From positions 1-30,008 of IMG/VR virus record IMGVR_UViG_3300044648_000192: a stretch of DNA of 30,008 nucleotides. One strand, 5' to 3'. The stretch is from a virus. The position numbers and the translations under genes are program-made. A model generated the notes under the pieces. The model did not search any database. It saw only the letters and a list, made by a program, of their open reading frames with translations, and was not told where the DNA came from. Each line of letters opens with the position of its first letter. Position 1 is the stretch's first letter. Shown piece by piece: positions 4,871 through 28,500 of the stretch.

Positions 4871-5226
4871 GTCACCCTATCTACTACGTACCGGCTGGCG
4901 ATGTCCTGCCCATTTTCTTTTCCACGTATGACGGCGGCACAGGGGCATCCCTGACCATGAGCGGCTTGGCCGTGACGGACGTTGAAATTTACAAGGACGG
5001 CAGTACCACGCAGCGGGCCAGCGATGCAGGCTTTACGCTCCTGGACACGGACGGTATCGACTTTGACGGCGTGACCGGAATTCACGGCTTTTCGATCGAT
5101 ACCGGAGACAATACAGACGCGAGCTTTTACACGGTAGGGGCCTGGTTCACGGTCGTGGTGTCATCCGTCACGGTGGACGCGCAGACTGTCAATTTTATCG
5201 CGGCCCAGTTTCGGATTATGCCGGCC
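4867..5226 (+). other. N-terminal beta domain of the repeat protein
   Basis: The first 120 codons encode a single beta-rich domain without repeats. It resembles anchor domains that attach a fibre to the virion and precedes the helical repeat stalk. The boundary is approximate. Confidence 0.4.
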
Positions 5227-6444
5227 GAGAGTTCGGCGGGTGTGCCAAAGGTGGATCTCTCGCACGTCGGAGGCGCCACGACGAACGTGTCCGCGTTGGC
5301 GACCAACGTCGACGCGATTCTGACCGACACCGGAACGACCCTCGATACCAAGATCAACACGATCGATGACTTTCTCGACACCGAAATCGCGGCGATCAAG
5401 GCGAAGACCGACAACCTCCCGGCCGCCCCGGCCGCGACAGGCGACATTCCCACGGCGGCCGCAATCGCCGACGCGGTATGGGACGAAGCGACCGCGGGGC
5501 ATACGACGGCGGGGAGTACCGGAAAGGCCCTCACGGATGCGGGTTCAGCGGGCGACCCCTGGAGTACGGCGCTCCCTGGCGCGTATGGGGCCGGGACGGC
5601 GGGGAAAATCGTCGGCGACAACATCAACGCGACGATTAGCAGCCGCGCCTCACAAACCTCAGTGGATACAGTGGATGATTTTCTCGACACCGAAATCGCG
5701 GCGATCAAAGCCAAAACGGACAACCTTCCCGCAGCGCCCGCGGCAACCGGAGATATTCCGACCGCCGCCGCGATTGCTGACGCGGTGTGGGATGAGGCCA
5801 CGCTAGGGCATACGACCAGCGGCACATTCGGGGAGCAGCTAAAGACGGACGTGGACGCCATTCTGGTGGATACCGATGTCATCGGCGCGACGGGCGGCGG
5901 GCTCACGTCTCTTGCGACTCAAGCCAGCGTGAATACCATAGATGATTTGCTCGATACTGAAGTGGCTGCAATCAAGACCGTTGTAGACTCCATCCTGGTA
6001 GATACGGCAGAAATCGGCGCAGCCGGGGCTGGATTGACCGCCGTTCCATGGAATGCAGCCTGGGATGCTGAAGTGCAGTCAGAGGCAACGGACGCGCTCA
6101 ACGCCTATGACCCGCCGACGAACGCAGAGCTAGCCACAGAAATCAACAGCGTGCAAGCCGATATTGCGGCCCTGAACAATCTGTCTGCGGCCCAGGTCAA
6201 TGCGGAAGTAGTGGACGCTCTAGCCACAGACACCTATGCCGAACCAGGGCAGGGCGCACCAGCAGCGACGGCTGCACTCTCCACCAAGCTCAACTATCTG
6301 TACAAGTCCTGGCGGAACAAAAAGGACAATGACGGCACGACCACGAACCTGTACGCGGACGATGCCACGACCGTGGATCAGAAGCAGTCTACGTCAGAAT
6401 CTGGCGGAACTGTCACTAAGGGCGAATGGATCACAGGGGCCTAA
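4867..6444 (+). CDS. Repeat-containing fibre-like structural protein (525 aa)
   Basis: Residues 1-120 form a beta-rich domain with segments such as GIHGFSIDTGDNTDASFYTV, a pattern I recall from fibre or baseplate-type phage proteins. From about 150 onward comes a series of repeats built on DDFLDTEIAAIKAKTDNLP plus TGDIPTAAAIADAVWDEA, with two perfect protein copies (near 169-211 and 272-314) and degenerate ones further on (DDLLDTEVAAIKTVVDSILV). The repeats look helical and would suit a trimeric stalk. The two perfect copies differ at nearly all synonymous sites. Codon choice in 5240-5900 is visibly richer in GCG, ACG and GAC than in the neighbours, suggesting acquisition or special selection. 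The start ATG overlaps the previous stop (ATGA). Confidence 0.72.
   Translation: MSHPIYYVPAGDVLPIFFSTYDGGTGASLTMSGLAVTDVEIYKDGSTTQRASDAGFTLLDTDGIDFDGVTGIHGFSIDTGDNTDASFYTVGAWFTVVVSSVTVDAQTVNFIAAQFRIMPAESSAGVPKVDLSHVGGATTNVSALATNVDAILTDTGTTLDTKINTIDDFLDTEIAAIKAKTDNLPAAPAATGDIPTAAAIADAVWDEATAGHTTAGSTGKALTDAGSAGDPWSTALPGAYGAGTAGKIVGDNINATISSRASQTSVDTVDDFLDTEIAAIKAKTDNLPAAPAATGDIPTAAAIADAVWDEATLGHTTSGTFGEQLKTDVDAILVDTDVIGATGGGLTSLATQASVNTIDDLLDTEVAAIKTVVDSILVDTAEIGAAGAGLTAVPWNAAWDAEVQSEATDALNAYDPPTNAELATEINSVQADIAALNNLSAAQVNAEVVDALATDTYAEPGQGAPAATAALSTKLNYLYKSWRNKKDNDGTTTNLYADDATTVDQKQSTSESGGTVTKGEWITGA
5371..5802 (+). repeat. Tandem protein repeat with diverged DNA (two main copies)
   Basis: Copies lie at 5371-5493 and 5680-5802. 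The first 29 bases are identical (5371-5399 against 5680-5708). The following 32 codons (5398-5493 against 5707-5802) encode exactly the same amino acids, yet 25 of the 32 codons differ, always synonymously. A third, degenerate unit follows from about 5938. Confidence 0.9.
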
Positions 6445-8466: not shown

Positions 8467-9558
8467 ATGGCACAACCGTCCAGTCTCAATGACGAATACG
8501 GGTTACTGCTTAGCTCGACCCTTCGAGCCTATCAGTCCCGTATTCGTGACAACATCGGCAAGGGCAACAAGTTTCTCGGCTGGCTCGACAGCAAAGGCAT
8601 GTGGAAAAAGCAGGACGGCGGCGAGCGCGTGTCCGTGCCCCTCATGTACGAGCACAATACTACGGCGGATATCTACTCTGGCTACGGCCAGTTGGATGTG
8701 CAGCCGCAGGACGGCCATACGACCGCGTTTTATGAGTGGTCGCAAGCGTCCGTGTCCATTTCAATTTCCCGCAAAGAGGAACGGCAGAACAGCGGCAAGA
8801 GCAAGATTTTCAGCATGCTTGAGTCCAAGACCAAGCAAGCGGAAAACTCGCTAAAGGAATTGCTGAATAACTGCATCGTGGCAGGCCGGATCACGGCGTC
8901 TGCCGATCTCGGACAGTTCACCGCCCGTCGTGGCAGCTTGGACAGCGGGGCGCAAGGCCCCTTGCCCCTGGCCGCTTTGGTGGACGCAAACCCGACCCGC
9001 TCCGCAGCGATCGGGAACATCAACCCGAACACCTACAGCTGGTGGGCGAATCAAATCAAGTCCAGCTCAGCGTCCAGCTTTGCCGGCCTCAAGTCGGAGC
9101 TGAACCACATCTACAACGACTGTTCCAAGGGTGTGGGCGGCGTGCCTGACCTCATGCTGAGCGATCAGATTGGCTGGGAAACCTACTGGCTCTCCCTCCA
9201 ATCGCAAGAGCGCTATGTCATCACTGACAGCCGCACGGTCGATATCCTGGGCGGCAGCGATGCGTTGAAGTTCCGCAAAGCGGCGTGGATCTGGGATGAA
9301 GTCGTGCCGGACGTGAAGACGAACGCCAACCCGATCGACGGGATCGGCTCAGCGTCCAAGTCCACAGTCTGGATGCTGAACACGGACTTTATCGAATTCT
9401 ACAGCGATGCCCAGACCGATTTTATCACGACCCCCTTTGTGCGTCCTGAGAACCAGGATGCGCGAGTGGCGCAAATCCTCTGGATGGGCGCATTGGGCGT
9501 GAGCAATCGGCGGAAGCATGGTGTGGCCTTCAATATCGCCCAGAACATCGCATCCTAA
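8467..9558 (+). CDS. Major capsid protein (363 aa)
   Basis: Length, position after the scaffold, and composition fit a podovirus HK97-fold coat protein. Features include an N-terminal arm (1-50), YEWSQASVSISISRKEERQN around 95-115 (E-loop/spine-helix transition), a long helix (SKTKQAENSLKELLNNCIVA), an A-domain-like region with PDLMLSDQIGWETYW, and a C-terminal beta region ending in VSNRRKHGVAF. A ribosome site (AAAGGG) lies upstream of the ATG. It assembles the icosahedral shell on the scaffold and contacts the small protein encoded next. No N-terminal prohead protease site is evident. Confidence 0.88.
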   Translation: MAQPSSLNDEYGLLLSSTLRAYQSRIRDNIGKGNKFLGWLDSKGMWKKQDGGERVSVPLMYEHNTTADIYSGYGQLDVQPQDGHTTAFYEWSQASVSISISRKEERQNSGKSKIFSMLESKTKQAENSLKELLNNCIVAGRITASADLGQFTARRGSLDSGAQGPLPLAALVDANPTRSAAIGNINPNTYSWWANQIKSSSASSFAGLKSELNHIYNDCSKGVGGVPDLMLSDQIGWETYWLSLQSQERYVITDSRTVDILGGSDALKFRKAAWIWDEVVPDVKTNANPIDGIGSASKSTVWMLNTDFIEFYSDAQTDFITTPFVRPENQDARVAQILWMGALGVSNRRKHGVAFNIAQNIAS

Positions 9559-9581: not shown

Positions 9582-10031
9582 ATGGCAATGTTTCAACGAG
9601 TCAACAGAAGTGACCCTGAGCGGGCCTTCATTGCAGTTTTGTCTAACGAAACCCTCGCGGCAGACGATGCCTGCATCTGGGAAACCGCTTCCGCCTCTAT
9701 CGATGGCGTGAAAGTGCGTCAGCCGGATACTGGCTTGCTGCATGCGTTCGTTGGCGTGGCGGACGGGGCCATTACTTCTGGCCAATATGGATTGGTCCAG
9801 GTCTATGGCTATCGCTCAACCAGCCGCGTGTTTCAGACCAATACCTCGCAGGATACCGGCGCCGTGTTAGTGCCGACCGCGGGCGCGGCCTATATGGCCA
9901 CGGTTGCAAGCTCTACCACGTCCTCGGCGGATGTGGTCTTGCGGCCTGTGTTTGCAGTGCTGGCTGAGACCATTGCGTCCAGCTCAGCGTCTGCAACAAT
10001 AAGTGCAAAGTTATTCCTCAGAGCAATGTAG
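9582..10031 (+). CDS. Capsid decoration/head-fibre-like protein (149 aa)
   Basis: It is preceded by a strong AAGGAG site and follows the coat gene by 23 bases. It is an Ala/Ser/Thr/Val-rich beta protein (ITSGQYGLVQVYGYRSTSRV) without Cys in pairs or membrane segments. This size and place, immediately after the coat protein, are typical of decoration or cement proteins that stabilise capsids. That role is inferred from context. Its stop overlaps a GTG at 10031, but a better start for the next gene lies past a hairpin. Confidence 0.7.
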   Translation: MAMFQRVNRSDPERAFIAVLSNETLAADDACIWETASASIDGVKVRQPDTGLLHAFVGVADGAITSGQYGLVQVYGYRSTSRVFQTNTSQDTGAVLVPTAGAAYMATVASSTTSSADVVLRPVFAVLAETIASSSASATISAKLFLRAM

Positions 10032-10038
10032 TGAACCG

Positions 10039-10064
10039 GGGGGAGGGCTTCGCGGCTCTCCCCC
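10039..10064 (+). terminator. GC-rich hairpin after the capsid genes
   Basis: GGGGGAGGGC (10039-10048) pairs with GCTCTCCCCC (10055-10064) over 10 bp, with one G-U pair and a TTCGCG loop. It lies just after the stop at 10031 and before the AGGAGG site at 10076. There is no clear T tract, so it may be an attenuator, an mRNA-stabilising end for abundant capsid messages, or a weak terminator. Confidence 0.6.
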
Positions 10065-10084
10065 TCCACTTTCCGAGGAGGTCC

Positions 10085-10336
10085 ATGGAATACGCGCCGA
10101 TCTTCCAACCTGAGAATGTCTTTGAACGTCTGGCCCATCGCTGGTTTACCTACTGGCATGGAGAAGGCGCGCCCCATCAGTACCGCTATCATCGGTGCAA
10201 GGGCTGTCACAAGCTCTTGACCTGGAATGTGATCCGCAAAGGCGGATGTGACTGCAATATTGATAAGCACATTATCCCGGCCAAGTTGACGATGTGTGAG
10301 AAGTTCAGAATCTTGGTGATGCCTTGGACCCTGTAA
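10085..10336 (+). CDS. Small Cys/His-rich protein (83 aa)
   Basis: The ATG at 10085 is chosen because of the strong GAGGAGGT just upstream; a GTG at 10031 would extend it through the hairpin. The middle contains CKGCHK followed by CDCNIDKH, a plausible Cys/His metal site. The remainder is aromatic and basic (ERLAHRWFTYWHGEG). It is the first gene of the sugar/methyl-transfer module and overlaps the glycosyltransferase start by 13 bases. No family is recognised. Confidence 0.65.
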   Translation: MEYAPIFQPENVFERLAHRWFTYWHGEGAPHQYRYHRCKGCHKLLTWNVIRKGGCDCNIDKHIIPAKLTMCEKFRILVMPWTL

Positions 10337-11097
10337 GAATCGCGTTTACGTCCACGAACTATGGGCCGCTCTGGAAGCCTGTTGTAGAGGGGTGGATTGC
10401 CTGCGTGGGGTATACCGCGCGGCATTTTGCGATTGAGACTCCAGGGACCAGGGAAATTGCGGGCAATGCGATCACCGACCGGATGTACACGCACAGCGCA
10501 GAAAACGCCATTGTCGAAAACTTCCTGAACGCCTACCCGAGGCTCACGCATCTGTTCATGACCGAATGCGACATGATCCTCCCGCACGATGCGATTGTGA
10601 AGCTGCTAGAAGTGGATCAGCCAGTGGTAAGCGGCGTTTATTTCCTCCGCAAGGGCCGTGGGCAACCCTGCCTGTATGTGAAAACCCACACGACGAAAGA
10701 TAACCCCTACGTCCATTCGCCAGTCAGTCTGTTTCCTACAGACCGGCCCTTTGCCCTGGACCCGAACGGGCACGGTGGATGCCCTGGGCTTGGCTGCGTG
10801 CTCATCAAGCGCGAGGTCTTGGAAGCGGTTCCCAAGCCATGGTTTGACCTTAAAGAAAACTACTACGGGTCTGACATGTATTTCTGGACAAAGGTGCGTG
10901 ACGCTGGGTTTAACGTCTGGATCAATCCCGCCGTGCAATGCGGACAGATCGACTACGAAGTGACCAGCATGAAGGATTATGAGCGACGGATAGGGGAGGA
11001 TAAAGACTTTGCCGCAAGCGGATACATTGTCGGAACCAATGGTTGGTCCGGTGCCCATCGGAGGATTCAACCTGAACTTGGGCGCGGGGAAAAGTAG
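10324..11097 (+). CDS. GT-A-like glycosyltransferase (257 aa)
   Basis: The fold pattern is that of a GT-A (family 2-like) enzyme, which moves a sugar from a nucleotide-sugar donor. Visible parts are an early strand (RIAFTS) and helix, LTHLFMTECDMILPHDAI (about 74-91) with E-x-D in place of the usual D-x-D metal site, a GVYFLRKG acceptor-side strand, and YYGSDMYFWTKVRDAGFNVW (180-199), similar to the late ED-x-x-[FY] element. The His that commonly follows is replaced (QCGQID). The start is TTG at 10324, overlapping the previous stop by 13 bases. It overlaps the downstream methyltransferase by up to 59 bases. The acceptor is unknown. Confidence 0.78.
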   Translation: MDPVRIAFTSTNYGPLWKPVVEGWIACVGYTARHFAIETPGTREIAGNAITDRMYTHSAENAIVENFLNAYPRLTHLFMTECDMILPHDAIVKLLEVDQPVVSGVYFLRKGRGQPCLYVKTHTTKDNPYVHSPVSLFPTDRPFALDPNGHGGCPGLGCVLIKREVLEAVPKPWFDLKENYYGSDMYFWTKVRDAGFNVWINPAVQCGQIDYEVTSMKDYERRIGEDKDFAASGYIVGTNGWSGAHRRIQPELGRGEK

Positions 11098-11776
11098 CAA
11101 GCAGCCGGGCCTGCTGAACTGCGATCTCTACCCAGGGCCGAACATTGACGTGGTCTTTGATCTGACCAAGCCCTGGCCATTTCCCGAACATTCGGTGGCT
11201 ACCATCTACCTGTGTCATGTGCTGGAGCACTTGACGGACCCGAAAGCCTTTTTCCGTGAAGCGCATCGGTGCTTACGCCCGAACGGCACCATTTTGATAC
11301 GGGTTCCCTATGGGGCGCATCGTGCCGCCTGGTGGGACCTTGAGCACGTCCGGCCCTGGTTTGCGGAAAACTTCGCCATGCTACAGCCCGGCTATGCCGT
11401 GGCCGTTGGCAACCCACAGCATGATTCGTGGAAGTATCCCTTCGGTATCTCGATTGTGCAGCTGCGCATTTCGTACCGTCTCGCCCGCTGGCTGAGGCGC
11501 TGGTGGTGGAAGTGGCTCTTCGCCAAGTTCCCGCACTTGTTTGACCCAGAAATTGAAGAGCTGTGGGCGCACCTGTATGCACTCAAGACCGATGACGCGA
11601 TTCAATATTATCGCAAGGATCATGACCCTATCGTAGTCGGCACCACGTATTCCGCCTATCAGCATCACCTGACCGACAAGGCCCCAGAGGCTGGCGTGTG
11701 TGTACTGACAGACCTGATCGGCGGCATCACCATGAACGGTTATATCGGGCGCGTGTTTGGACTGGAAAAGGCCTAG
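11039..11776 (+). CDS. SAM-dependent methyltransferase, class I (245 aa)
   Basis: Class I (Rossmann) motif I is seen as LNLGAGKSSKQPG (about 12-24), an acidic residue ends the next strand (LNCDLYPG, D29), and post-I/II elements appear as YLCHVLEHLTDPKAFFREAH (57-76) and RPNGTILIRVPYG. This is the type 11/sugar-methyltransferase pattern. A basic Trp-rich stretch (RLARWLRRWWWKWLF) in the second half may contact membrane or substrate. The start could be ATG at 11039 or TTG at 11009; I prefer ATG. It lies in a tight set with a glycosyltransferase, so a glycan or lipid-linked sugar is a likely substrate, which is inference. Confidence 0.82.
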   Translation: MVGPVPIGGFNLNLGAGKSSKQPGLLNCDLYPGPNIDVVFDLTKPWPFPEHSVATIYLCHVLEHLTDPKAFFREAHRCLRPNGTILIRVPYGAHRAAWWDLEHVRPWFAENFAMLQPGYAVAVGNPQHDSWKYPFGISIVQLRISYRLARWLRRWWWKWLFAKFPHLFDPEIEELWAHLYALKTDDAIQYYRKDHDPIVVGTTYSAYQHHLTDKAPEAGVCVLTDLIGGITMNGYIGRVFGLEKA

Positions 11777-12288
11777 TGGATAACACGGTCATGCAATGGC
11801 TCATGGACTTTAACGAGGCGAAGGGCCCGTTCAAGCGCGTGCTGGAGCTTGGCTCCCTGAACGTGAACGGGACAGCCAGGACAGCCTTCTGGAATGCGGC
11901 AGAGTACGTAGGGATTGATAGCAGGCCAGGGCCGTGCGTGGATCATGTGATTGAAGCATCATGGATAGCCGAGCACTTCCACGGGCATGACAAGTTTGAT
12001 TGCGTAGTGGCCACATCGTTTTTCGAGCATGACCGCAATTTTGTACAAACCTTACAAAACCTACGTTTTGTGCTCAATCGGGGCGGCTACTTCGTCCTGA
12101 CAGTCCCAACCCCTGACTTTCCCTACCATGCCGAGCCTAAAGACTACTGGCGCTTTCAGGAGGATGCGCTGCGTGACGTGTTCTTCGACGGTTTCTCAGA
12201 GGTAACAATTTTTAATCCACTCTGGACACCGCCGACTGGTCAAGAGCACCTACGCTGCCAGCACATGGGCGGATGGGGGAAGCTCTAA
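11776..12288 (+). CDS. SAM-dependent methyltransferase, class I, second copy type (170 aa)
   Basis: Motif I is LELGSLNVNGTAR (23-35), the acidic end of beta 2 is D48 in GIDSRPGPCVD, and the post-I region is VVATSFFEHDRNFVQTL (78-94), followed by FVLNRGGYFVLTVPTP. It is distinct from the upstream methyltransferase and shorter. A YWRFQEDALRD segment near 125-135 resembles the C terminus of sugar or lipid methyltransferases. GTG at 11776 shares a base with the upstream TAG, and a GTG start of the next gene follows its TAA directly, so four genes in a row are translationally linked. Confidence 0.82.
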   Translation: MDNTVMQWLMDFNEAKGPFKRVLELGSLNVNGTARTAFWNAAEYVGIDSRPGPCVDHVIEASWIAEHFHGHDKFDCVVATSFFEHDRNFVQTLQNLRFVLNRGGYFVLTVPTPDFPYHAEPKDYWRFQEDALRDVFFDGFSEVTIFNPLWTPPTGQEHLRCQHMGGWGKL

Positions 12289-14667
12289 GTGGCCACGACC
12301 TACACCAACCAACCGGCAGGGGCAACCATCTTCTACGACTGTTCGCTGGCCGGCACGATTTGCGGCATGCGCAATGTGTATAACACGCAAGACTACGCCA
12401 CCATGCTCAGGTCAGATGGCACGACCGGGCAAGTGTTTGATTCCTACCTAGGCGAGTACATCCGATACGGTAACGGGCAATGGGAATTGTACCCGCCCCG
12501 CCCGAGAGAGATTTACCTCGGCGTGCAGTGGAATACGAACGCAGACTTTCAAGGCATTGCCAACAATGGCAATAAGATGTTTTTTATCAAGGCCCCAAGC
12601 TCTGGCGATAATAGCTTTCTGATTTGGCAGGGCCTGCCCTATACCGCTCGCACATTAAAATGGGACTTCCAGGCGATCTACAGTAACGCACATATCAACG
12701 GCTGGCAAGGGGACGCAAGCGGGCTCTCTGGCTGGTTAGAGCCGAACGTGAATGGAAGCGCGGCCACGGTAGCAGCCGGCGCGGGCTGGCGCTTTATCGA
12801 GATTTACCTGAAGGCGAGCACGACCGGCACGTCTCGGGATGGGGTCGTGCGCTGGTGGGTTCAGCGAACCCTCTGCGGGAACTATACCAACGTCAACATC
12901 TCCCCTGGCGGATTTGAGGAGTTTGTACTGACCCATACATGGGACAATGGCACGATCTTTGAGCCGCCTTCCCGTGACTGGTCCAAGGCCTGGCACCATT
13001 ATTTTGCTGACTTGCGTATCACGACGGGCGGGACTGTGGGAGGAGGAGAGCCACCCCCACAGGTTGTTCTGGAGTCACTCACCCCGGCCAATACCAGCAC
13101 GACCGTAGGCGGAACCAGGCAATTTACCATCAGCATGAGCGGGGCCATGCCATCGGCCACCTCGCTCTTTACCACCTCCAGCAATCCAGCTGTGGCCACA
13201 GTGCCGGCCTCGGTCACGATCTCGCAAGGCTCCTCTACGTCCGTGTTCAGCGCCACAGGGGTAGCGGTAGGATCGACCACGATCAGCACGAGTTATAACG
13301 GCGTGAACAAGGCCGGGACCTTACAGGTTGCGGCAGCGCCCACGACCGGAACGGACACGACCTACACGTACTCCACCGACTTTTCAGGGACGCAAGGGCC
13401 GTACTGGTACTACATGGAAGAGGACGGCACGGAGATGACCTATGATAGCGGCGGCTCCGTTTGGCTAGGCGCAGATGCGGCTGAAGTTCAAACGATCTGG
13501 GGGAACGGGTTTCACCCTGGGCGCTTTGAAGGCTCCATGGTCCGCTTCGTGGTGCCCACCTCTAGCAGCGCTCGCATCACCGGGGCCTACTACGATGCTG
13601 ACGCGACTGGCGGAACTGGCGTTGTTGCCAGGGTCAACCATAACGGTGTAACGCTGTTTACCCGCACGATTGCCAACGGCGAGACCACAGGCGGGGCCTA
13701 CGATGTCACGGAAACGGTAGCCGCTGGCGATTTCATCGACTTTCTGGTGACGAACCAGACCAGTGATTACACGTACAATTCCACGAACCTGAACCCCGTC
13801 ATTGTTCTGACCGAGACCACCTCCAATCCTGGCGGCGGGACGCCTCCCGACCCGCCTGCCACAGTGGTGGACCTGTTCACGGCCAGCACGACCATCATTA
13901 AGGACGTGCCCTTTACCTTGACCGTGCGGCTGTCCAAGATTGTGACGGTCGATACCGCGGTCGAAATCAGGGTAGGGAGCACCAGCCTGATTACTGCCGC
14001 TACCTCTGTCACGGTCGCATCGGGAACCAACGAAAAGTCCTTTACCGTGACGCCCATTCAGGTGGGCAACGTGGCTATTGACGCGATTCTGACCACCACG
14101 GCCAGGTACAACGCCTCCATTCAGCCGAACCCGAACGATAACCCGCCAGTGGAGGAGCCAGAGATACCGCCGATCACGCCAGAAAACCCCTTGATTGTGA
14201 AGAGCCTGGCCGTGTCGCCAGATGGGGCCGTGGTCCTCCTGAACAGGCCGGCCAGCTCCCTAGCCTTCCGGTACGATGCGCAGCCTGAGTGGCGGGTGCT
14301 CTCTACCTTCATTCCAGGCGGCGAGACGTTCACGCATGCCTTTACCTGGCCATCAGGGACCACGCTCATTAGCTACCGGGCGCAGGACGGCGCGGGCACC
14401 TGGGGGCCGCATGCTAGCGCAGCCTTTGTGCCTCCACAGCCTCCTCCCATTCCGCCCCCTGTCACGCTGGCGGTGACTGACAAGGACGGCATCCGCTGGC
14501 AACTGACCGGCAAGATATCGCCCATGATCCTGAAGCGGAACGGCTCGACCATGAATAATACGTATGGCACGACCTTGCGCAGGACCGGGGACGGCTACAT
14601 GGAAATGCTGCAAACGAACGGGGCATGGATTCGCAGGAACGGCAGCGCCTGGGAGTTTGTCGCATGA
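12289..14667 (+). CDS. Large multidomain Ig-like virion/surface protein (792 aa)
   Basis: GTG directly follows the previous TAA. Approximate domains: 1-250 a beta-rich lectin or lyase-like domain with many Trp and Tyr; 258-345 a BIG2-like Ig domain (QFTISMSGAMPSATS and later strands); 350-515 a carbohydrate-binding-like jelly roll (ARVNHNGVTLFTRTIANGET); 520-612 another Ig-like domain; a Pro-rich linker (NPNDNPPVEEPEIPPITP); 636-715 an FN3-like domain; a PPQPPPIPPP hinge; and a 60-residue Trp-containing C-terminal domain (NGAWIRRNGSAWEF). There is no signal peptide or membrane anchor, so it is probably a virion fibre or head decoration rather than a host-exported protein. Glycosylation by neighbours is possible but unproven. 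Confidence 0.75.
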   Translation: MATTYTNQPAGATIFYDCSLAGTICGMRNVYNTQDYATMLRSDGTTGQVFDSYLGEYIRYGNGQWELYPPRPREIYLGVQWNTNADFQGIANNGNKMFFIKAPSSGDNSFLIWQGLPYTARTLKWDFQAIYSNAHINGWQGDASGLSGWLEPNVNGSAATVAAGAGWRFIEIYLKASTTGTSRDGVVRWWVQRTLCGNYTNVNISPGGFEEFVLTHTWDNGTIFEPPSRDWSKAWHHYFADLRITTGGTVGGGEPPPQVVLESLTPANTSTTVGGTRQFTISMSGAMPSATSLFTTSSNPAVATVPASVTISQGSSTSVFSATGVAVGSTTISTSYNGVNKAGTLQVAAAPTTGTDTTYTYSTDFSGTQGPYWYYMEEDGTEMTYDSGGSVWLGADAAEVQTIWGNGFHPGRFEGSMVRFVVPTSSSARITGAYYDADATGGTGVVARVNHNGVTLFTRTIANGETTGGAYDVTETVAAGDFIDFLVTNQTSDYTYNSTNLNPVIVLTETTSNPGGGTPPDPPATVVDLFTASTTIIKDVPFTLTVRLSKIVTVDTAVEIRVGSTSLITAATSVTVASGTNEKSFTVTPIQVGNVAIDAILTTTARYNASIQPNPNDNPPVEEPEIPPITPENPLIVKSLAVSPDGAVVLLNRPASSLAFRYDAQPEWRVLSTFIPGGETFTHAFTWPSGTTLISYRAQDGAGTWGPHASAAFVPPQPPPIPPPVTLAVTDKDGIRWQLTGKISPMILKRNGSTMNNTYGTTLRRTGDGYMEMLQTNGAWIRRNGSAWEFVA

Positions 14668-15560
14668 TCTTCGTTCATCACGCGGGCAAAATGGGGGACC
14701 TCCTCTATGCACTGCCAGTACTGCGGGCGTTGGCAAGGGTCCACCAAACGAAAATCCACCTCACCACCTCAGGATTGTGCTGGCAGCTTGTGCCCCTCTT
14801 GTGGGAACAGCCTTATATCGGGGACGTGGCCCTGGATGACACCAGAGCCTATGAGCTTCCCTTTGGCGTCGGCATTACCAACCACTGGGACCACTACAAA
14901 CCAGGCGAAGGTATCAACCTTAGCCTCCAGCCCAAGCACTATGCCAACGACTGCCCCATCAACTGGACCCAGGCATATGCTTGGATCGCTGGGGTTACGC
15001 TACAGCCGGAAGACTACATAGGGCTGCCGTCCCTGGTGAATCATCGGCGCTGGTTCCAGACCGTGGACTGCCGACTGGATGGCAAGAAGCAGGACGTGAC
15101 CAAGACCATCATTGTGGCTCCTGAAGTCGAAACGCTGGAGCCTGCCCCGCCCGAGACCTGGACGAAGATCATAGACGCGCTCTTGGATCACTACAACGTG
15201 GTCCTGGTGGGGCAGAAGGATGCCCCAAACTACCGGCACAAGCTCATGGCCTGGGCCGGCAGCCACAATTCCCCGCGGCTTCGTGACTTGCGGGGATGCA
15301 CGACGGTACCGACCTTGGCCAGGCTCATTGCTGAATCCGCTGCCTTTATCGGCGCGCATTCCATGCCCTGGCACTTGGCACGACTGTCCGGCGTCCCTGC
15401 CTTCTGCTTCCAGAAATGGCGCGAGGGCTTACGGCGCTGTATCCCGGTTGATACCGACCCGAATCTCTGCCCATGGCCGGAAGAAATCGAAGACTGGCAC
15501 GCGGCAGTCGAATGGATTGAATCGAAAACAGGAGGACCAGCCCATGCCGTATCGCAATGA
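14664..15560 (+). CDS. GT9-like (heptosyltransferase-fold) protein (298 aa)
   Basis: The N-terminal MIFVHHAGKMGDLLYALPVL and the C-terminal VVLVGQKD (179-186), LIAESAAFIGAHSMPWHLAR (221-240) and SGVPAF are the typical signature of GT-B enzymes of family GT9, best known from ADP-heptose:LPS heptosyltransferases. The ATG at 14664 overlaps the previous stop (ATGA). The usual D-S-G-x-x-H element reads H-S-M-P-W-H, keeping the His but not the Asp, so the exact activity may differ. In phages such genes may alter host lipopolysaccharide or decorate virion proteins. Its neighbours favour a shared sugar pathway. Confidence 0.78.
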   Translation: MIFVHHAGKMGDLLYALPVLRALARVHQTKIHLTTSGLCWQLVPLLWEQPYIGDVALDDTRAYELPFGVGITNHWDHYKPGEGINLSLQPKHYANDCPINWTQAYAWIAGVTLQPEDYIGLPSLVNHRRWFQTVDCRLDGKKQDVTKTIIVAPEVETLEPAPPETWTKIIDALLDHYNVVLVGQKDAPNYRHKLMAWAGSHNSPRLRDLRGCTTVPTLARLIAESAAFIGAHSMPWHLARLSGVPAFCFQKWREGLRRCIPVDTDPNLCPWPEEIEDWHAAVEWIESKTGGPAHAVSQ

Positions 15561-15837
15561 TGAATTCTTACGCAAAGCCCGCGTGACACTCTACTACGAC
15601 AAGGACGCGCAAAAGCTCTTGGCTTATTGCAAAATCGAGCCGTTTGATTCCACGTCAGAATATGATGCGAATAGCGAATATTACGTGCCCTTTCGCCTCA
15701 GTGCAGGGATTTTCGATAAGGGCGAAATGCCCTTTCGCGTGGTGATTGAAAATAAAAAGGACGGTGCCTTTCCCTCGAATGCGCACAAGGGCCAGGCCGT
15801 GGGTACGATTGAGATTCACCAATACGGGGACCTGTGA
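15544..15837 (+). CDS. Hypothetical protein, likely small head/tail component (97 aa)
   Basis: A good AGGAGG site precedes the ATG at 15544, which lies inside the GT9-like gene by 17 bases. The protein is acidic and basic in blocks, with KARVTLYYDKDAQKLLAYC and a beta-rich middle (YYVPFRLSAGIF). No family is recognised. The stop overlaps the adaptor start as GTGA. Because it returns to structural genes, a minor virion role is plausible. Confidence 0.62.
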   Translation: MPYRNDEFLRKARVTLYYDKDAQKLLAYCKIEPFDSTSEYDANSEYYVPFRLSAGIFDKGEMPFRVVIENKKDGAFPSNAHKGQAVGTIEIHQYGDL

Positions 15838-16514
15838 ACCGAGGCCAAATCATTGACCGCGTGCTGACATCCCTGAACGAGTCCACGATTGCGCCTGTGT
15901 TTTGGACCAGGGCTGAACTGGCCGATATTCTGCAGGATGGCATGGAAGTCATGGCCGAGGAGGTCATGGCGCTGAAGCGATCAGCCTTTGTCGGCCTGGG
16001 CCCTGGCAAGCTCTATTACAGGACCAGGGGCATTGCCAAGGACTTCCGCGTACCCTATCGCCTCTGGCTGTCCAGCAATAACCGGAAGCTCATTCCTGTG
16101 ACGGTTGAGCAGCTTGACGGCTTTCATCAGCAATGGAGCACAGTCACTGGCGATCCTGAGTACTGGGCCCCCATGGGGTATGACTGGTTCACGATCTTTC
16201 CCCATCCTTCTACGGGCGGGGGCGTGCTTCGGATTGATTACTTAGCCTGGCCGCGGGTGTTAGGCGGCGACGACGACAAGCCGGAATTCTCAGAATCAGA
16301 CCACGACACCCTCATGACCTATGGCATTTATGATGGCCTGCTCAAGCGCTGGGCCGCGCCCGAGGCCATGGCCATCTTTGCGCAGTTCCTTGAAAAGCTG
16401 GGCATGGCCGTGCCTAAGAGCGGCGTCAATCAGCTCAATGGCCGGACCTGGCAGAAGGAAAGCGCTGCCGCGAGTGGGTTCAGGAATGGGATCGGGTGGA
16501 GGGATGGACGGTAA
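15834..16514 (+). CDS. Head-tail adaptor protein (226 aa)
   Basis: The helical N terminus (IDRVLTSLNESTIAPVFW then ELADILQDGMEVMAEEVMAL) followed by a beta domain (IFPHPSTGGGVLRIDYLAWP) and a helical C-terminal part (LMTYGIYDGLLKRWAAPEAM) matches the pattern of phage adaptor or gp6/gp11-like connector proteins that ring the portal. It starts at GTG (GTGA overlap) and sits right before a second, larger protein with a similar helical beginning. The C-terminal tail is Gly-rich (GFRNGIGWRDGR). Confidence 0.78.
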   Translation: MNRGQIIDRVLTSLNESTIAPVFWTRAELADILQDGMEVMAEEVMALKRSAFVGLGPGKLYYRTRGIAKDFRVPYRLWLSSNNRKLIPVTVEQLDGFHQQWSTVTGDPEYWAPMGYDWFTIFPHPSTGGGVLRIDYLAWPRVLGGDDDKPEFSESDHDTLMTYGIYDGLLKRWAAPEAMAIFAQFLEKLGMAVPKSGVNQLNGRTWQKESAAASGFRNGIGWRDGR

Positions 16515-23436: not shown

Positions 23437-24947
23437 AGCAGGAAGAGATTCTAGCAGAGGCACGCAGGCAGGCCACAGAAGACTTTCTGAAGCGTACACC
23501 AGATGGCCAGCGCATGACCAATCTAGCCGCGGGCACGCCATGGAAGCCCACGGCCTTTGACATGGAAGCGCAGCAGCACCAGACCACGCTCGCGCCCGGC
23601 GCAGAGGAACCGGAAGACGGCGGGATGATGCAATCCCTTGGGCAAATGGCCAAGCAAGGCGCACTGCCAGCCATAGGCGCAACGATAGGTGCGCTCTCGC
23701 CTGTCCCTGGCGGGGCTGCGATGGGGGGCGGGCTTGGCGAAATGGTCAACCAGGCTGTCGGCATTACTGAGCCAAGCGGAATGGCCATTCTCATGAACGG
23801 CATTGCTCCAGCGGGCGGGAATATAGCAGGACGAGCGATGAGGAACCTTCCGCGGGCCATCCCTGGTGCAGGCGCAGCGGTGAATGAATTGGCTGCGCAG
23901 CAGGGCGCGCAAATCCCGCAAAAGATTGGGCCAGAACGGACGCTTGAAGGCATTATGAAGCTGGTAAGCCTCAAAAATCCGAAGGCTGACACTGGCGCAG
24001 TGCAACAGGCTTTAATGGGGCAGATGGACCAGCTGCTAAAGAATCCAGAAAAGAAAGTCTCCCAGGTCTTGTATGAGGTAGCAGACGACTTGGCGAAGCA
24101 GGCGGGCGGGCCGATCCGCGTAGACTCCATGACGATCAGGGAGGCCACTGCCAAGCTCCTCAACAAAGAGGCGAAGATGGGCAGCGCGACGGCCTCACCT
24201 GAAATCAAGGCCCTAGCGGAAGAGTTTAACGACCTCACCAAGGGCGGAACAGGCGTACCATTCGACGTACTCTATGCGCGATTGCAACGGCTGAACGGCC
24301 AAGTCGGCGGGGCCAAGGGTGAAGACCAGGGCGCATACAAGTTACTGATTGGCGCGATCGAGGATGATATAGAGCACGCAGTAAAAAGCTCAGCCGATAA
24401 CATGCCGGCTGCACAAGCATTCAGGACCGCGCAAGCCGCCTGGCAAAAAGAGAAGGGTCAAAAAACCGTACTCGACATTATTAACAGGGCGACAACTGAG
24501 CGCGCCAGCGATGGAATGGTGCAGTTCAATCGTGGGACGGTGCAGAAGGCGCTGAAGGACGAGCGGTTGCAGAAATTGCTAGGGCCAGAGGCCGTGAAGT
24601 TCATCAAGGAAGACCTGTCCAATATGGGCATCATTACAAAGCTGCCGCCAGGCCCAGGCGAACACTTCGGATCAGGCCGCAACATTATCGGGGCCAGTGC
24701 GGGGGCCTTGTATGGGGCGTATGGTGGAGGGCCAAGCGGGGCAATGCAACTTGGCGCGGCTGTCCCTGTGGCCATGGAATTGATTAGCAAGGCAGCCATG
24801 ACATCAACAGGGCGCACCATGATTAAAGCCTTTGTCAAGGCAGGACAAGGCAAACTCACCCCAGCAGCCATGTCAATACTGGCAGCCTATGTAGAAGGCG
24901 GGACGCACATCTTAGATGGGGCCGCAGAAATGGCGGTGGGCGAGTGA
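23433..24947 (+). CDS. Internal virion protein with Gly/Ala-rich hydrophobic region (504 aa)
   Basis: Residues 1-65 are charged and polar. Residues about 70-150 form long Gly/Ala/Met-rich hydrophobic stretches (LPAIGATIGALSPVPGGAAM) that could insert into a membrane. A helical middle follows (KVSQVLYEVADDLAKQAGGP), and a second Gly/Ala-rich hydrophobic region lies around 405-450 (IIGASAGALYGAYGGGPSGA). This pattern suits an ejection protein forming a channel across the host envelope. It ends in the GTGA overlap with the first tail fibre gene. No catalytic motif is recognised. Confidence 0.65.
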   Translation: MKQEEILAEARRQATEDFLKRTPDGQRMTNLAAGTPWKPTAFDMEAQQHQTTLAPGAEEPEDGGMMQSLGQMAKQGALPAIGATIGALSPVPGGAAMGGGLGEMVNQAVGITEPSGMAILMNGIAPAGGNIAGRAMRNLPRAIPGAGAAVNELAAQQGAQIPQKIGPERTLEGIMKLVSLKNPKADTGAVQQALMGQMDQLLKNPEKKVSQVLYEVADDLAKQAGGPIRVDSMTIREATAKLLNKEAKMGSATASPEIKALAEEFNDLTKGGTGVPFDVLYARLQRLNGQVGGAKGEDQGAYKLLIGAIEDDIEHAVKSSADNMPAAQAFRTAQAAWQKEKGQKTVLDIINRATTERASDGMVQFNRGTVQKALKDERLQKLLGPEAVKFIKEDLSNMGIITKLPPGPGEHFGSGRNIIGASAGALYGAYGGGPSGAMQLGAAVPVAMELISKAAMTSTGRTMIKAFVKAGQGKLTPAAMSILAAYVEGGTHILDGAAEMAVGE

Positions 24948-26212
24948 CAGAGACCATCAGATACAGCCGCATCGCCCTGCAGGACCTAGACCTAGGCTCA
25001 GGCTCAACACAAGTCACCTTAGCGGATGGCCGCGTCGTGGTCATGGATCAAGTGAGCTTGGCCGGGATTGCCCAGGATGCGGGCGTGCTCAGTTTCGATC
25101 AAGTCGCTGTCCAGTCCGTCAAGCACGCCTCTCTCGCTGCGGCAATTGCTACGCTTGGCAGTACCGAGGCCACGATTGTGATAGCCAACCTCCAGACGAT
25201 CGATAGCAATACCACGGTGCCTAGCAACATCACGCTTCAGTTTCTGGACCAGGGCCAAGTCAGTGTCGCTAGCGGCGTGACATTCCTGGTCAATGGCCGG
25301 GTGGTGGCGGCCAATCGGCAAATCTTCTCAGGCTCTGGCACGACCACGCTGGATAGTAGCGTGAATCCGCTGGAATATGGCTACTGGAATGGCGGGGGTG
25401 GGCTCCCGTACCTGACCGGCTTCAGGGGCGGGCAAAGCACCACGACCACGCCCTTTTCCTTGCAAGACGCAGCCGGCACGACTGGCCGTAGGCTGTCCCT
25501 GGAGGCCTCTAGTGCAGGCGGGGCCGAATTCCAAATGAAGCCAGGGTCTAGCGCCACGCCTGCCAGCCAAGTGACGAATGACCTGATTATGCAGCACAAG
25601 ACCGGGACGGACCTGGAACAGTTCAGGATTCGCACGGCCAGCAACGTCTATACCATCGACAGCACCTATAGCAATGTGGGCACGCCCAGGCCCATTGCCT
25701 TTACCATGGGCGCACGTATCGAACCCTCGGCAGTCGCTGGCGTGACAGCCCTGACCTTGTATGCGGACGCATCTGTTGATATACATAGCTCCAGCTACAC
25801 GGCAAACGGCAAAGTGTGGGGGGCTACGTATGCACGATTCACTGATCCAGGAGACAACGGAACTACTAAAGTCATCCTTGACACTCGCTCAACAACTCCA
25901 GCATCAAATACAGCCGATGCTTGCTTCCATGAGTACCGCAGAGGTGGCACGGCTAAGTGGAGTATTGGACTTAATGTTACAGCAACAGCAGTTGACTCTC
26001 TGGACATATACTCGTCTGGCGGACGCTTTGTCAGGTTCCTTGACCTCAACTCAGGGCCGGTTATCGAACTCTCAGCTGAATGCTCTGCAGACCCAGACGC
26101 CCCAGCCGCCAACCGGGCCAGGCTCTATTTGATCGACAGCGGGGCAGGGAAAACGATTCTCAAGGTACGGTTCTCAAGCGGGGCCGTTCAAACGATTGCG
26201 ACCCAGCCATGA
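24944..26212 (+). CDS. Tail fibre/spike protein 1 (422 aa)
   Basis: Residues 1-36 (MTETIRYSRIALQDLDLGSG and on) match the start of the larger spike at 26500, so they are probably the virion-binding anchor. Residues 68-130 resemble the short beta-helix head of phage spikes (NITLQFLDQGQVSVASGVTF, RQIFSGSGTTTL). The rest is Gly/Ser/Thr-rich beta sequence ending AGKTILKVRFSSGAVQTIA. From about 25830 codon choice shifts towards A/T-ending codons, and a 100-codon ORF is open in another frame there. It starts at GTG overlapping the previous stop. Receptor binding or depolymerase activity is inferred. Confidence 0.72.
   Translation: MTETIRYSRIALQDLDLGSGSTQVTLADGRVVVMDQVSLAGIAQDAGVLSFDQVAVQSVKHASLAAAIATLGSTEATIVIANLQTIDSNTTVPSNITLQFLDQGQVSVASGVTFLVNGRVVAANRQIFSGSGTTTLDSSVNPLEYGYWNGGGGLPYLTGFRGGQSTTTTPFSLQDAAGTTGRRLSLEASSAGGAEFQMKPGSSATPASQVTNDLIMQHKTGTDLEQFRIRTASNVYTIDSTYSNVGTPRPIAFTMGARIEPSAVAGVTALTLYADASVDIHSSSYTANGKVWGATYARFTDPGDNGTTKVILDTRSTTPASNTADACFHEYRRGGTAKWSIGLNVTATAVDSLDIYSSGGRFVRFLDLNSGPVIELSAECSADPDAPAANRARLYLIDSGAGKTILKVRFSSGAVQTIATQP
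25830..26132 (+). CDS. Possible overlapping gene inside fibre 1 (100 aa)
   Basis: In an alternative frame within the fibre gene, an ATG opens 100 codons for a well-formed helical protein (SLIQETTELLKSSLTLAQQL, then QPMLASMSTAEVARLSGVLD) with a Pro/Gln/Thr tail. The amino-acid pattern is far more protein-like than other shadow frames here. Only a weak G-rich stretch precedes it. It may be a real nested gene or chance. Confidence 0.3.
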   Translation: MHDSLIQETTELLKSSLTLAQQLQHQIQPMLASMSTAEVARLSGVLDLMLQQQQLTLWTYTRLADALSGSLTSTQGRLSNSQLNALQTQTPQPPTGPGSI

Positions 26213-26376: not shown

Positions 26377-26522
26377 CCGAGAAAGATTACTGCATCATTA
26401 TCGGGGCGAAAGAGGCGCACATTTACGAACTGACGCAGCAAAACCATCACTTAACGAAGGACCTAGAGGCTGCACGAGCCCAACTTAAGGAGTTGGCTCG
26501 TGACAGAAACAGTCCGGTATAG
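26373..26522 (+). CDS. Tiny helical protein between spike genes (49 aa)
   Basis: The ATG shares ATGA with the upstream stop. It encodes a helical, probably coiled-coil peptide (MTEKDYCIIIGAKEAHIYEL then HHLTKDLEAARAQLKELARD). Its last 23 bases overlap the start of the big spike gene, whose AAGGAG ribosome site lies inside it. A regulatory or chaperone role is possible. No family is recognised. Confidence 0.55.
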   Translation: MTEKDYCIIIGAKEAHIYELTQQNHHLTKDLEAARAQLKELARDRNSPV

Positions 26523-28500
26523 TCGCATCTACCTGCCCGACCTCTCCGTAGGCACTGGCACTGGCCAAGTCGTCTTAGCCGATGGCCGTGTGGTGTCCAT
26601 GGATGAGGTCAACCTAGACCTCCTTGCGCACCAACTCTCTGGCCGTTCCGGCCTGCTGCCGATCAAGGTCCTGGATACCAAGTGGTATGCCATGGCCGGC
26701 TATAACACCCTCTCCGATGCTGTCCTGGCGATCGGCTCAGCGACACGCGTGCTACTCATCACCACGACCATTTCCGTAGACGCCTCGACTACCATTCCCT
26801 CTAACGTGACAATCTGGCTGGCCGGCGAAGGGTCTTTTTCTGTCAGTGCTGGCATCACCTTGACCTTGCCCAGTCCCGCGGCCATTCATGCGCCTGGCTC
26901 CAGGCAAATCTTTAGCGGCTCAGGAACCGTGAGCTTCACGATAGGCGGCACGGCATCTCCTGGCTGGTTTGGCCTGGCGACATCGGCCTCAGCCGCGACC
27001 AATGCGGCGGCCATTGAAGATTGTATGAACGCCTTGCCCACGGCCAACTGCGGAAGCCTCATCTTTCCTGGTGACTCCTACAGCTCTGGCAATGTCCAAA
27101 TAAGCAACCGCAATAACCTCACGCTCAATGGTAACGGGTCAACCATCAACTGGAGCGGAACCGCAGCGGCCAGCAACTTCATCGGCTTTCAGCTCCTGAA
27201 TACCTGCAGTCAGATTACTGTCCAGAACTTCCACTTAGTGGGGGATGGCACAGCCGCTAGCGGCCATGCCGGGCTTTGGAACGCATCAGGCCAAACGATT
27301 TCACAGACGACCGTGCAATCTAACCACATTGAGGACTGCACGGTTGGCATTAGCTATAACGCAGCCTCAAGCGGAACCCATGCGGGCGGCGTCATCTCGC
27401 AGAACTACATCACGAACGTGGTAGGGACCTCAAGCGGCCAGGGCTATGGTATCCACCTGTCCAGCGCGACCAATATTCGAGTCTTTGAAAACTGGATCAA
27501 CCTTGCCCAGCGCCATAGCATTTACCACGCCAGCGGGGATTCCGGCTGTGTCATCCACGACAATATCATCACGAATCATCGCTCGGGCGTCTCTAATGAC
27601 ACCTACACCTGCGCGATCTCTGTCAGTCGCTCATCTAACGTAACCGTCTCCCATAACATCGTCAGGGACCACTACGACGGCGGCATAGAGGTCTCGCATA
27701 CCACGGTGGATGCGCTGAACTGCAGCAATATCATCGTGAACGGCAATCAGTTCATCGACCGGCAGAACGCGGTTGAGGACATGCTCATCGGGGAGCAGGG
27801 GGTTCCGACCAGCTACGAGACCTATAACGTCCACGTCAGCAACAATCTCTTCACCAACGCCTACGCCGACAAAAGCACGTCAGCCAATATCATTGTGATG
27901 AATGGCCGGCAGCTGCACATTTCCGGCAATACGTTCAAAACCACTGGCATCACTGGCACGGCGCGGTTTATCACCATCGGCCACAACTCGCACATCAGTA
28001 GCGATTCCCACTGCACAGAAACGCACCTGCTGAACAATGTCATTGTGGTGGAAGGGAACACCCTTACGGACGTGCGCTGCCTGGAATACTGCACGGACAT
28101 CCTCACGAATACCTCGCGCCATGTGTCTAAGGGCTCATCTGTGCCAACCGGGGCCTTGCGCTGGTACGACGGCACGACCAGGACCAACCCCAACATCAGG
28201 ACCGATAGCAGTACCGGCCACTTCATGGGCCTGTATACCGCTGCCGATACGACCCCGAGCGTGTATCAAGTCACCTGCATGTATATCGCCAATGCCGGGG
28301 GCGTGACGATCACGCAGTTTGACGACGGGGAAGAGGGGCAAGTGCTGACCCTGATCTTTGCCGACACCAATACGACCGTTTCAGATGGGGCGAACATTCA
28401 GCTGGCCAGCAGCACTAACTTTACCTCAGCCGGGAACGCAACCCTCGTGCTGGTCAAGCGCAGCACCCAATGGTTCCAGATTGGCGGGAGTACCAACTAA
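26500..28500 (+). CDS. Tailspike with right-handed beta-helix (666 aa)
   Basis: The start GTG at 26500 has AAGGAG at 26485-26490. Residues 1-36 repeat the anchor of fibre 1 (MTETVRYSRIYLPDLSVGTG). About 85-155 forms a head with the motif RQIFSGSGTVSF, then G-W-F-G, common in phage pectate-lyase-like spikes. From 180 to 530 is a parallel beta-helix with many N-N/N-x-I-x turns (HIEDCTVGISYN, NLFTNAYADK and similar). The C-terminal 100 residues are a beta domain (GVTITQFDDGEEGQVLTLIF) resembling trimerising caps. Such proteins bind and often cleave surface polysaccharide. Catalytic residues cannot be assigned by eye. Confidence 0.82.
   Translation: MTETVRYSRIYLPDLSVGTGTGQVVLADGRVVSMDEVNLDLLAHQLSGRSGLLPIKVLDTKWYAMAGYNTLSDAVLAIGSATRVLLITTTISVDASTTIPSNVTIWLAGEGSFSVSAGITLTLPSPAAIHAPGSRQIFSGSGTVSFTIGGTASPGWFGLATSASAATNAAAIEDCMNALPTANCGSLIFPGDSYSSGNVQISNRNNLTLNGNGSTINWSGTAAASNFIGFQLLNTCSQITVQNFHLVGDGTAASGHAGLWNASGQTISQTTVQSNHIEDCTVGISYNAASSGTHAGGVISQNYITNVVGTSSGQGYGIHLSSATNIRVFENWINLAQRHSIYHASGDSGCVIHDNIITNHRSGVSNDTYTCAISVSRSSNVTVSHNIVRDHYDGGIEVSHTTVDALNCSNIIVNGNQFIDRQNAVEDMLIGEQGVPTSYETYNVHVSNNLFTNAYADKSTSANIIVMNGRQLHISGNTFKTTGITGTARFITIGHNSHISSDSHCTETHLLNNVIVVEGNTLTDVRCLEYCTDILTNTSRHVSKGSSVPTGALRWYDGTTRTNPNIRTDSSTGHFMGLYTAADTTPSVYQVTCMYIANAGGVTITQFDDGEEGQVLTLIFADTNTTVSDGANIQLASSTNFTSAGNATLVLVKRSTQWFQIGGSTN

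What the first reader, a model, noticed from the sequence alone, without database searches (positions are those of the whole stretch)
10085..15560. Glycosyl- and methyl-transfer module with a large Ig-like protein inside the head genes
A GT-A-like glycosyltransferase, two different class I methyltransferases and a GT9-fold protein surround a 792-aa protein with Ig-like and carbohydrate-binding-like domains. All are packed without gaps between the capsid genes and the head-tail adaptors, where podophages usually have nothing of this kind. The coupling (TAGTG, direct TAA/GTG, ATGA) argues they act together. A possible system is glycosylation and O-methylation of a virion-surface Ig protein, or of host surface sugar. 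The GT-A lacks the usual late His and the GT9 has lost the Asp of its D-S-G-x-x-H element, hinting at changed chemistry.
Basis: partly seen in the sequence, partly recalled or inferred. Interest (0 to 1): 0.72.

Follow-up and report, generated by a model that had tools for sequence, protein, structure and literature searches.

The report
Sugar-and-methyl enzyme island beside capsid genes
In a family of environmental podophages, one fixed spot just behind the capsid genes always holds a sugar-transferring enzyme together with a methylating enzyme, often with changing sugar-tailoring genes, which suggests these phages build methylated sugar coats, most likely on their own particles.

Summary
The block is real. 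Between the capsid genes and the head-tail adaptor lie a GT-A glycosyltransferase (AF2 model; best match STIV A197, Z 17.8), two class I methyltransferases, a 792-aa beta-rich protein and a GT9-like protein. Searching by capsid protein, all 19 contigs with MCP at least 57% identical carry the GT-A right after the minor head gene. In all 17 where sequence continues, a methyltransferase adjoins it or is fused to it. Forty more distant relatives lack GT-A. GT9 is common, MT2 rarer, and the Ig-like protein occurs only in the window and two contigs of one metagenome. The slot also holds, by phage, a GDP-mannose-dehydratase-like enzyme, sulfotransferases, PhyH dioxygenase, radical SAM, MptE-like and other GTs and MTs. 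GT-A lost the canonical DDD/GTD/His set (now ExD/GSD/Gln) as a clade-wide, purified change; GT9 has His for Asp in all seven aligned members. Best reading: a phage glycan-decoration island making methylated sugars, most likely on the virion; the Ig-like protein is a late, domain-swapping adhesin-like insert. The substrate is inferred, not shown.

The parts
8467..9558 (+). major capsid protein (left border of the slot)
   Evidence: phrog_9953 major head protein E 5e-41
9582..10031 (+). 149-aa minor head / decoration-like protein, conserved next to MCP; candidate glycan acceptor (inferred)
   Evidence: homologs directly after MCP in the clade and, weakly, in many relatives without GT-A
10031..10336 (+). 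small Cys-rich zinc-ribbon-like protein (RCxGC...GGCxC), conserved upstream of GT-A
   Evidence: alignments and synteny; motif read from sequence
10324..11097 (+). GT-A glycosyltransferase, ExD/GSD/Gln subfamily (core)
   Evidence: PHROG E 2e-9; AF2 pLDDT 74, pTM 0.79; STIV A197 Z 17.8, 170 residues, 2.5 A; 19 of 19 close relatives
11039..11776 (+). class I SAM methyltransferase MT1 (core partner)
   Evidence: Methyltransf_11 E 3e-10; adjoining GT-A in relatives or replaced by an MT fused to GT-A
11776..12288 (+). class I SAM methyltransferase MT2 (accessory)
   Evidence: Methyltransf_23 E 2e-9; only in window, L001, L002, L020/L052, L051
12289..14667 (+). 792-aa beta-rich multidomain adhesin-like protein: variable N-terminal jelly-roll-like part (about 1-254), Ig-like (about 255-354), carbohydrate-binding-like region (about 355-514), second Ig-like repeat (about 520-614), C-terminal module (about 630-792)
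   Evidence: Big_5/Big_2 sub-threshold; Polysacc_lyase E 1e-5 in the L002 homolog; domain limits by eye; N-term 30% vs C-term 65% identity to L002; AF2 model unusable
14664..15560 (+). GT9-like (heptosyltransferase-like) protein, AHSxPWH in place of D-S-G-x-x-H (accessory, frequent)
   Evidence: Glyco_transf_9 sub-cutoff in 6 of 6; TIGR02201 E 9e-6; seven-member alignment
15544..15837 (+). 97-aa conserved head-region protein
   Evidence: homologs at the same place in L001 and L002; 98-aa ORF at the same place in L012-L014
15834..16514 (+). head-tail adaptor (right border of the slot)
   Evidence: SU10_adaptor E 3e-14

Best explanation
The slot between the minor head gene and the adaptor is a glycan-tailoring island of a podophage clade. 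The GT-A moves a sugar from a host-made nucleotide sugar onto an acceptor; MT1 methylates the product; GT9 (and in other members further GTs, a nucleotide-sugar dehydratase, sulfotransferases or a dioxygenase) and MT2 extend or cap the glycan. Because the genes lie inside the late head operon, no recognisable membrane or lipid-carrier enzyme accompanies them, and the closest known fold is a virus glycosyltransferase proposed to glycosylate a coat protein, the most likely acceptor is the phage head (MCP or the 149-aa protein), giving a methylated glycan coat that varies between phages. The Ig-like protein is a lineage-specific adhesin-like addition to the head region that may also be decorated. 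Shown: presence, synteny, coupling, GT-A fold. Inferred: activity, donor, acceptor, purpose (shielding or adhesion).
For: MCP-anchored search: GT-A in 19/19 close contigs, MT adjoining or fused in all 17 that extend past it, GT-A absent within 8 kb of MCP from 40 more distant contigs with at least 3 kb after MCP. GT-A-MT fusions in L058, L059, L060, L063, L073, L074, L078 and GT2-MT fusions in L075, L089, L090. Rotating sugar-tailoring genes in the same slot: GDP_Man_Dehyd E 3e-52 (L061), Sulfotransfer_3 E 3e-13 (L073), Sulfotransfer_4 (L074), PhyH E 2e-16 (L078), Glyco_trans_1_2 E 1e-29 (L089), Radical SAM and MptE-like (L026). Fold: STIV A197, whose role in coat glycosylation is proposed in PMC4187194. 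Precedent: glycans on mycobacteriophage capsid and tail tube (PMC12619734) and GT plus MT read as virion glycosylation in PMC13313380. A separate MT + true GT9 pair among head genes of unrelated podophages L034/L037 and a GT/MT cluster in ctKR88 before the phage stabilization protein.
Against: No acceptor, donor or glycan is shown. The 149-aa protein is also found in relatives without GT-A, so no structural protein tracks the enzymes exclusively. Gene position among head genes does not prove a head substrate. GT9 is below Pfam cut-off. The relatives are metagenome contigs without an isolate.
Confidence: 0.58

Rival explanations
1. The enzymes act on the host surface: late in infection they glycosylate or methylate LPS or capsule sugars to block superinfection or to prevent progeny from sticking to debris.
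For: GT9-like protein is nearest to LPS heptosyltransferases (TIGR02201 E 9e-6); soluble GTs could act on cytoplasmic lipid-linked precursors; the Ig-like protein resembles an adhesin for surface sugars.
Against: No flippase, GtrA/GtrC-like membrane protein or lipid-carrier GT was recognised in the block; genes sit inside the head operon, not in an early or lysogenic region; L020 GT9 also scores against a protein O-heptosyltransferase.
Confidence: 0.17
2. One reading: the five genes are one system whose purpose is to glycosylate and methylate the 792-aa Ig-like protein.
For: Tight gene coupling in the window; Ser/Thr-rich Ig-like repeats read from sequence; MT2 and the Ig gene are neighbours in all three records that hold the latter.
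Against: Ig gene only in window, L001 and L002, whereas GT-A + MT are in all close relatives that extend far enough and GT9 in several without it; L020 and L051 keep MT2 and GT9 with only a 124-aa ORF without similarity to the Ig protein between them.
Confidence: 0.1
3. DNA hypermodification: the GT-A and MTs add sugars to modified bases to protect against restriction.
For: Two distant GT-A members have weak sub-cutoff similarity to TET-associated glycosyltransferases.
Against: No thymidylate synthase/hydroxymethylase family hit in 10 records, most of them partial (positive controls rang); no Tet_JBP hit in 15 (but no positive control rang, so inconclusive); location inside the head genes; GT9 is of LPS/protein-glycan type.
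Confidence: 0.07
4. The slot is merely a permissive insertion site collecting unrelated morons, with GT-A and MT1 retained by chance.
For: HNH endonucleases and beta-rich ORFs also sit there; cultured relative BUCT555 has holin/endolysin at this place.
Against: GT-A in 19/19 and a coupled MT in 17/17, repeated fusions, and most of the recognised extras point to glycan tailoring; dN/dS 0.01-0.30.
Confidence: 0.08

Closest known systems
Virion glycosylation of mycobacteriophages (Freeman et al. 2023, as cited in PMC11256854, PMC12619734, PMC13313380)
   Same: Phage-encoded GTs, in some actinobacteriophages with a methyltransferase, linked to glycans on capsid and tail tube.
   Different: Different phages (podophages, host unknown); enzymes sit in a fixed slot between minor head gene and adaptor and are often fused; no glycan shown here. 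The original paper was not readable in the library.
STIV A197 GT-A glycosyltransferase (PDB 2c0n; PMC4187194)
   Same: Best fold match (Z 17.8, 21% identity); Asp in G-S-D aligns with the A197 G-E-D motif; virus with a glycosylated coat protein.
   Different: Archaeal virus; window subfamily has ExD and Gln where canonical members have DXD and His; no MT partner was examined for A197.
GT9 heptosyltransferases (PF01075, TIGR02201, TibC/Aah protein O-heptosyltransferases)
   Same: N-terminal G-x-x-GD motif and C-terminal donor-site region align.
   Different: Below curated cut-offs; His replaces Asp and Met/Phe/Leu replaces Gly in the D-S-G-x-x-H element in all seven aligned members.
Ig-domain decoration proteins and head fibers (T4 Hoc, N4 gp17, phi29 gp8.5; review PMC7602432)
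   Same: Multidomain Ig-like protein encoded among head genes, possible surface adhesion role.
   Different: 792 aa with jelly-roll-like and carbohydrate-binding-like parts; no sequence relation found; presence in virions untested.
Mx8-like podophages (Mx8, BUCT555, ppBjS10J-1)
   Same: Homologous MCP (26-30% identity) and similar head gene order.
   Different: No annotated GT or MT in the MCP-adaptor slot.

Membership tests
GT-A glycosyltransferase | GT-A fold | tested here: met
   AF2 pLDDT 74 / pTM 0.79; STIV A197 Z 17.8 and many GT-A enzymes Z 12-17. The fold is shared by nucleotidyltransferases, but relatives in the same slot hit Glyco_tranf_2_3 E 4e-9 and Anp1 above cut-off.
GT-A glycosyltransferase | DXD metal motif | tested here: not met
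   ECD/EMD in the window subfamily; DDD in the fused and most distant members. Exact motif not met; ExD variant conserved.
GT-A glycosyltransferase | catalytic-base Asp (xED / G-x-D) | tested here: met
   GSD in the subfamily; aligns with the GED of A197, whose Asp151 is called the catalytic base in PMC4187194.
GT-A glycosyltransferase | late metal-binding His | tested here: not met
   Gln in nearly all subfamily members, His kept in L027/L067 (one contig) and in the distant members.
GT9 (Glyco_transf_9) | family HMM above curated cut-off | tested here: not met
   17.6 of 22 bits; sub-cutoff in every member.
GT9 (Glyco_transf_9) | D-S/T-G-x-x-H donor element | tested here: not met
   H-S-M/F/L-P-W-H.
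GT9 (Glyco_transf_9) | N-terminal G-x-x-GD with catalytic Asp | tested here: met
   GKMGD invariant in seven members; catalytic role of the Asp from general knowledge of WaaC.
class I SAM methyltransferase | Pfam model above cut-off | tested here: met
   MT1 Methyltransf_11 41 bits, MT2 Methyltransf_23 38 bits.
virion-glycosylating phage system | glycan on a structural protein | not testable with these tools
   needs virions and mass spectrometry
virion-glycosylating phage system | phage-encoded GT conserved with structural genes | tested here: met
Ig-like decoration protein | Ig-like domains by curated model | tested here: inconclusive
   Big_5 15.8 of 23.6 bits, Big_2 14.6 of 22.8 bits; structure model failed

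The most novel reading that the evidence does not exclude
A podophage clade has made a two-enzyme core (GT-A plus methyltransferase, repeatedly fused) a fixed part of its head operon, with a subfamily of GT-A that replaced its metal-binding set (DDD/GTD/His to ExD/GSD/Gln), and uses the slot as an exchange site for glycan-capping enzymes (methyl, sulfo, hydroxyl, extra sugars), producing strain-specific, methylated or sulfated glycan coats on capsids as a variable surface in the contest between phage and environment.
Probability: 0.4. Interest if true: 0.72.

Novelty: new variant of a known kind. Interest (0 to 1): 0.57.

Why it matters
Phage virion glycosylation is shown in few systems. A clade in which a GT-methyltransferase pair is fixed next to the capsid gene and surrounded by swappable glycan-capping enzymes would give a gene-level marker for sugar-coated phages, predict methylated or sulfated coats, and make the question of why phages glycosylate themselves testable by comparing members with different accessory sets. 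The coordinated change of metal ligands in GT-A is a concrete enzymology question.

Tried and rejected
Megablast and tblastn of the block against cultured phages: no relatives of GT9 or the Ig protein, only a 24% partial match for GT-A. Structure of the 792-aa protein: pLDDT 35, not used for fold search. PDB sequence searches for its parts: chance-level. hhalign of window GT9 against the L034 GT9: weak (probability 2.8%). DNA hypermodification markers: Thymidylat_synt absent (controls rang), Tet_JBP inconclusive (no control rang). PF01370 epimerase not found in ten contigs, though L061 has one. Promoter and terminator scans are at shuffle level in the block. Literature search found no paper holding the terms phage-encoded, heptosyltransferase, glycosyltransferase and virion together. 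Diversifying selection: dN/dS at most 0.30 everywhere (crude counting method, dS near saturation against L002), so the Ig N-terminal divergence looks like replacement or old divergence rather than ongoing positive selection.

Full report
Observation. The window is a podophage fragment (virus record of 30008 bases). MCP is at 8467-9558, the SU10-type adaptor at 15834-16514. Between them are, in order: a 149-aa head protein, a Cys-rich small protein, GT-A, MT1, MT2, a 792-aa protein, GT9-like, and a 97-aa protein.

Identity of the enzymes. MT1 and MT2 are class I SAM methyltransferases. The GT-A is not called by Pfam but by PHROG glycosyltransferases (E 2e-9); an AF2 model from 11 phage homologs (pLDDT 74) matches STIV A197 best (Z 17.8, 170 residues, 2.5 A), with LH3 close behind (Z 17.4, 185 residues, 3.1 A) and Mimivirus R699 and other GT-A enzymes below. 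A profile of the family also finds A197 by sequence (E 0.0024). The GT9-like protein is sub-cutoff for Glyco_transf_9 in each of six members scanned, nearest to heptosyltransferase III, RfaQ and TibC-type models. No fold was predicted for it.

Relatives found by the enzymes. Contigs 3300042904_000223 (L001) and _000265 (L002) hold the same block. Contigs at about 50-60% GT-A identity (L012, L013, L014, L020, L024, L025, L026, L027, MAG contig L039) hold GT-A and MT1 in the same slot but not the Ig protein. GT9 is in L012, L013, L014, L020 and L051; among these MT2 is only in L020 and L051. Other members have a Methyltransf_24 protein (L012, L014, L039), an extra MT and a weakly GT2_4-like protein (L027), or MptE-like plus radical SAM proteins (L026).

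Test not conditioned on the enzymes. Using an MCP alignment, 79 viral contigs were fetched. All 19 with MCP at least 57% identical have GT-A directly after the 149-aa head gene and its small neighbours; two are cut by the contig end, and all 17 others have an MT adjoining or fused. Seven more distant contigs also have GT-A. Forty distant contigs with 3 kb or more after MCP have no GT-A within the 8 kb searched. So the pair looks like a derived, stably kept trait of a subclade (no tree was built).

Coupling by fusion. In L058, L059, L060, L063, L073, L074 and L078 a single ORF of 441-494 aa carries GT-A and an MT (Pfam shown for L059 and L074: MT E about 1e-14, GT2-type E 4e-9 in L074; the others by BLAST to these). 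In L075, L089 and L090 a second GT2 is fused to an MT1-like domain next to GT-A (Pfam for L075 and L089). This argues that sugar and methyl transfer are steps of one job.

Slot cargo. L061 has a GDP-mannose-dehydratase/epimerase family protein (E 3e-52) with GT9; L073 and L074 sulfotransferases; L078 a PhyH dioxygenase; L089 and L075 a Glyco_trans_1_2 enzyme. Beta-rich-looking ORFs of unknown role lie there in L059, L061 and L063, and HNH endonucleases next to the Cys-rich gene in L001 and L002.

The missing residues. In the distant and fused members GT-A has DDD (DND in L075), G-T/E-D and a late G-H. In the window subfamily these are E-x-D, G-S-D (G-Q-D in L061) and Gln, with His kept only in L027/L067 (the same contig). 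The Asp aligned with catalytic-base Asp151 of A197 is kept. The change is lineage-wide and under purifying selection (dN/dS 0.06-0.09), so altered metal or donor handling is likelier than loss of function. GT9 has His for Asp in all seven aligned members while the N-terminal GKMGD is invariant.

The 792-aa protein. It is found only in window, L001 and L002. Its first 254 residues are 30% identical between window and L002, the rest 65% (neighbouring enzymes 76-85%). The L002 N-terminal part resembles Polysacc_lyase (E 1e-5), the next part Ig-like domains below threshold. No signal peptide is evident on reading. I read it as an adhesin-like head or fiber protein with an exchangeable tip; the AF2 model failed.

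Mechanism. Shown: conserved GT-A + MT, fusions, variable tailoring genes, position. Inferred: host nucleotide sugar as donor (ten contigs searched show no epimerase), acceptor on the virion head, methylated glycan, role in shielding or adhesion. Rivals are host-surface modification, DNA modification, the strict Ig-protein system, and chance moron accumulation; reasons are given in their sections. The host is not known; the only cellular lead is a contig in a Betaproteobacteria groundwater MAG (L039), which may be a binned phage.

Novelty. Phage virion glycosylation is known, and GT plus MT has been read that way in actinobacteriophages (PMC13313380, PMC12619734). The fixed slot, the fusions, the swapping caps and the ExD/GSD/Gln GT-A subfamily are what I could not find described, hence new variant of a known kind.

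Noticed in passing
L001:2010-2507; L002:11901-12299; L013:2062-2535 and 4891-5418: HNH endonuclease genes inserted beside the Cys-rich gene (absent from the window at the same place) and elsewhere before MCP; the region attracts homing endonucleases.
   Followed up: partly
L034:3270-5066 and L037:5995-7791: Unrelated podophage contigs (identical 345-aa GT9) carry an MT1-like methyltransferase, a short ORF and a true GT9 (E 1.6e-11) right after a 547-aa portal-like gene: possible parallel case.
   Followed up: partly
L040 (MW202524.1, ctKR88): Podophage record with annotated beta-glucosyltransferase, other GTs, HAS-like and two methyltransferases before the phage stabilization protein.
   Followed up: partly
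window 15067-15966: Window and L001 are about 95% identical through the MCP but fall to 77-84% in GT9 and the next gene, a mosaic pattern.
   Followed up: partly
window 24944-26212 and 26500-28500: Two tail-end proteins share a 40% identical N-terminal stretch of about 146 residues: likely alternative fibers on one attachment domain.
   Followed up: no
L012:7973-8368, L013:11018-11563, L014:11167-11550: DUF192 protein (E 4e-11 in L014) between the 98-aa protein and the adaptor in these relatives.
   Followed up: no
MCP of the clade: MCPs with GT-A are mostly 360-390 aa, those without mostly about 310-330 aa; GT-A-bearing L075 and L089 are short, so the link is imperfect.
   Followed up: no
L067:20107-20919: Second, distant GT-A-like ORF far downstream of the slot in the L027 phage contig.
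   Followed up: no
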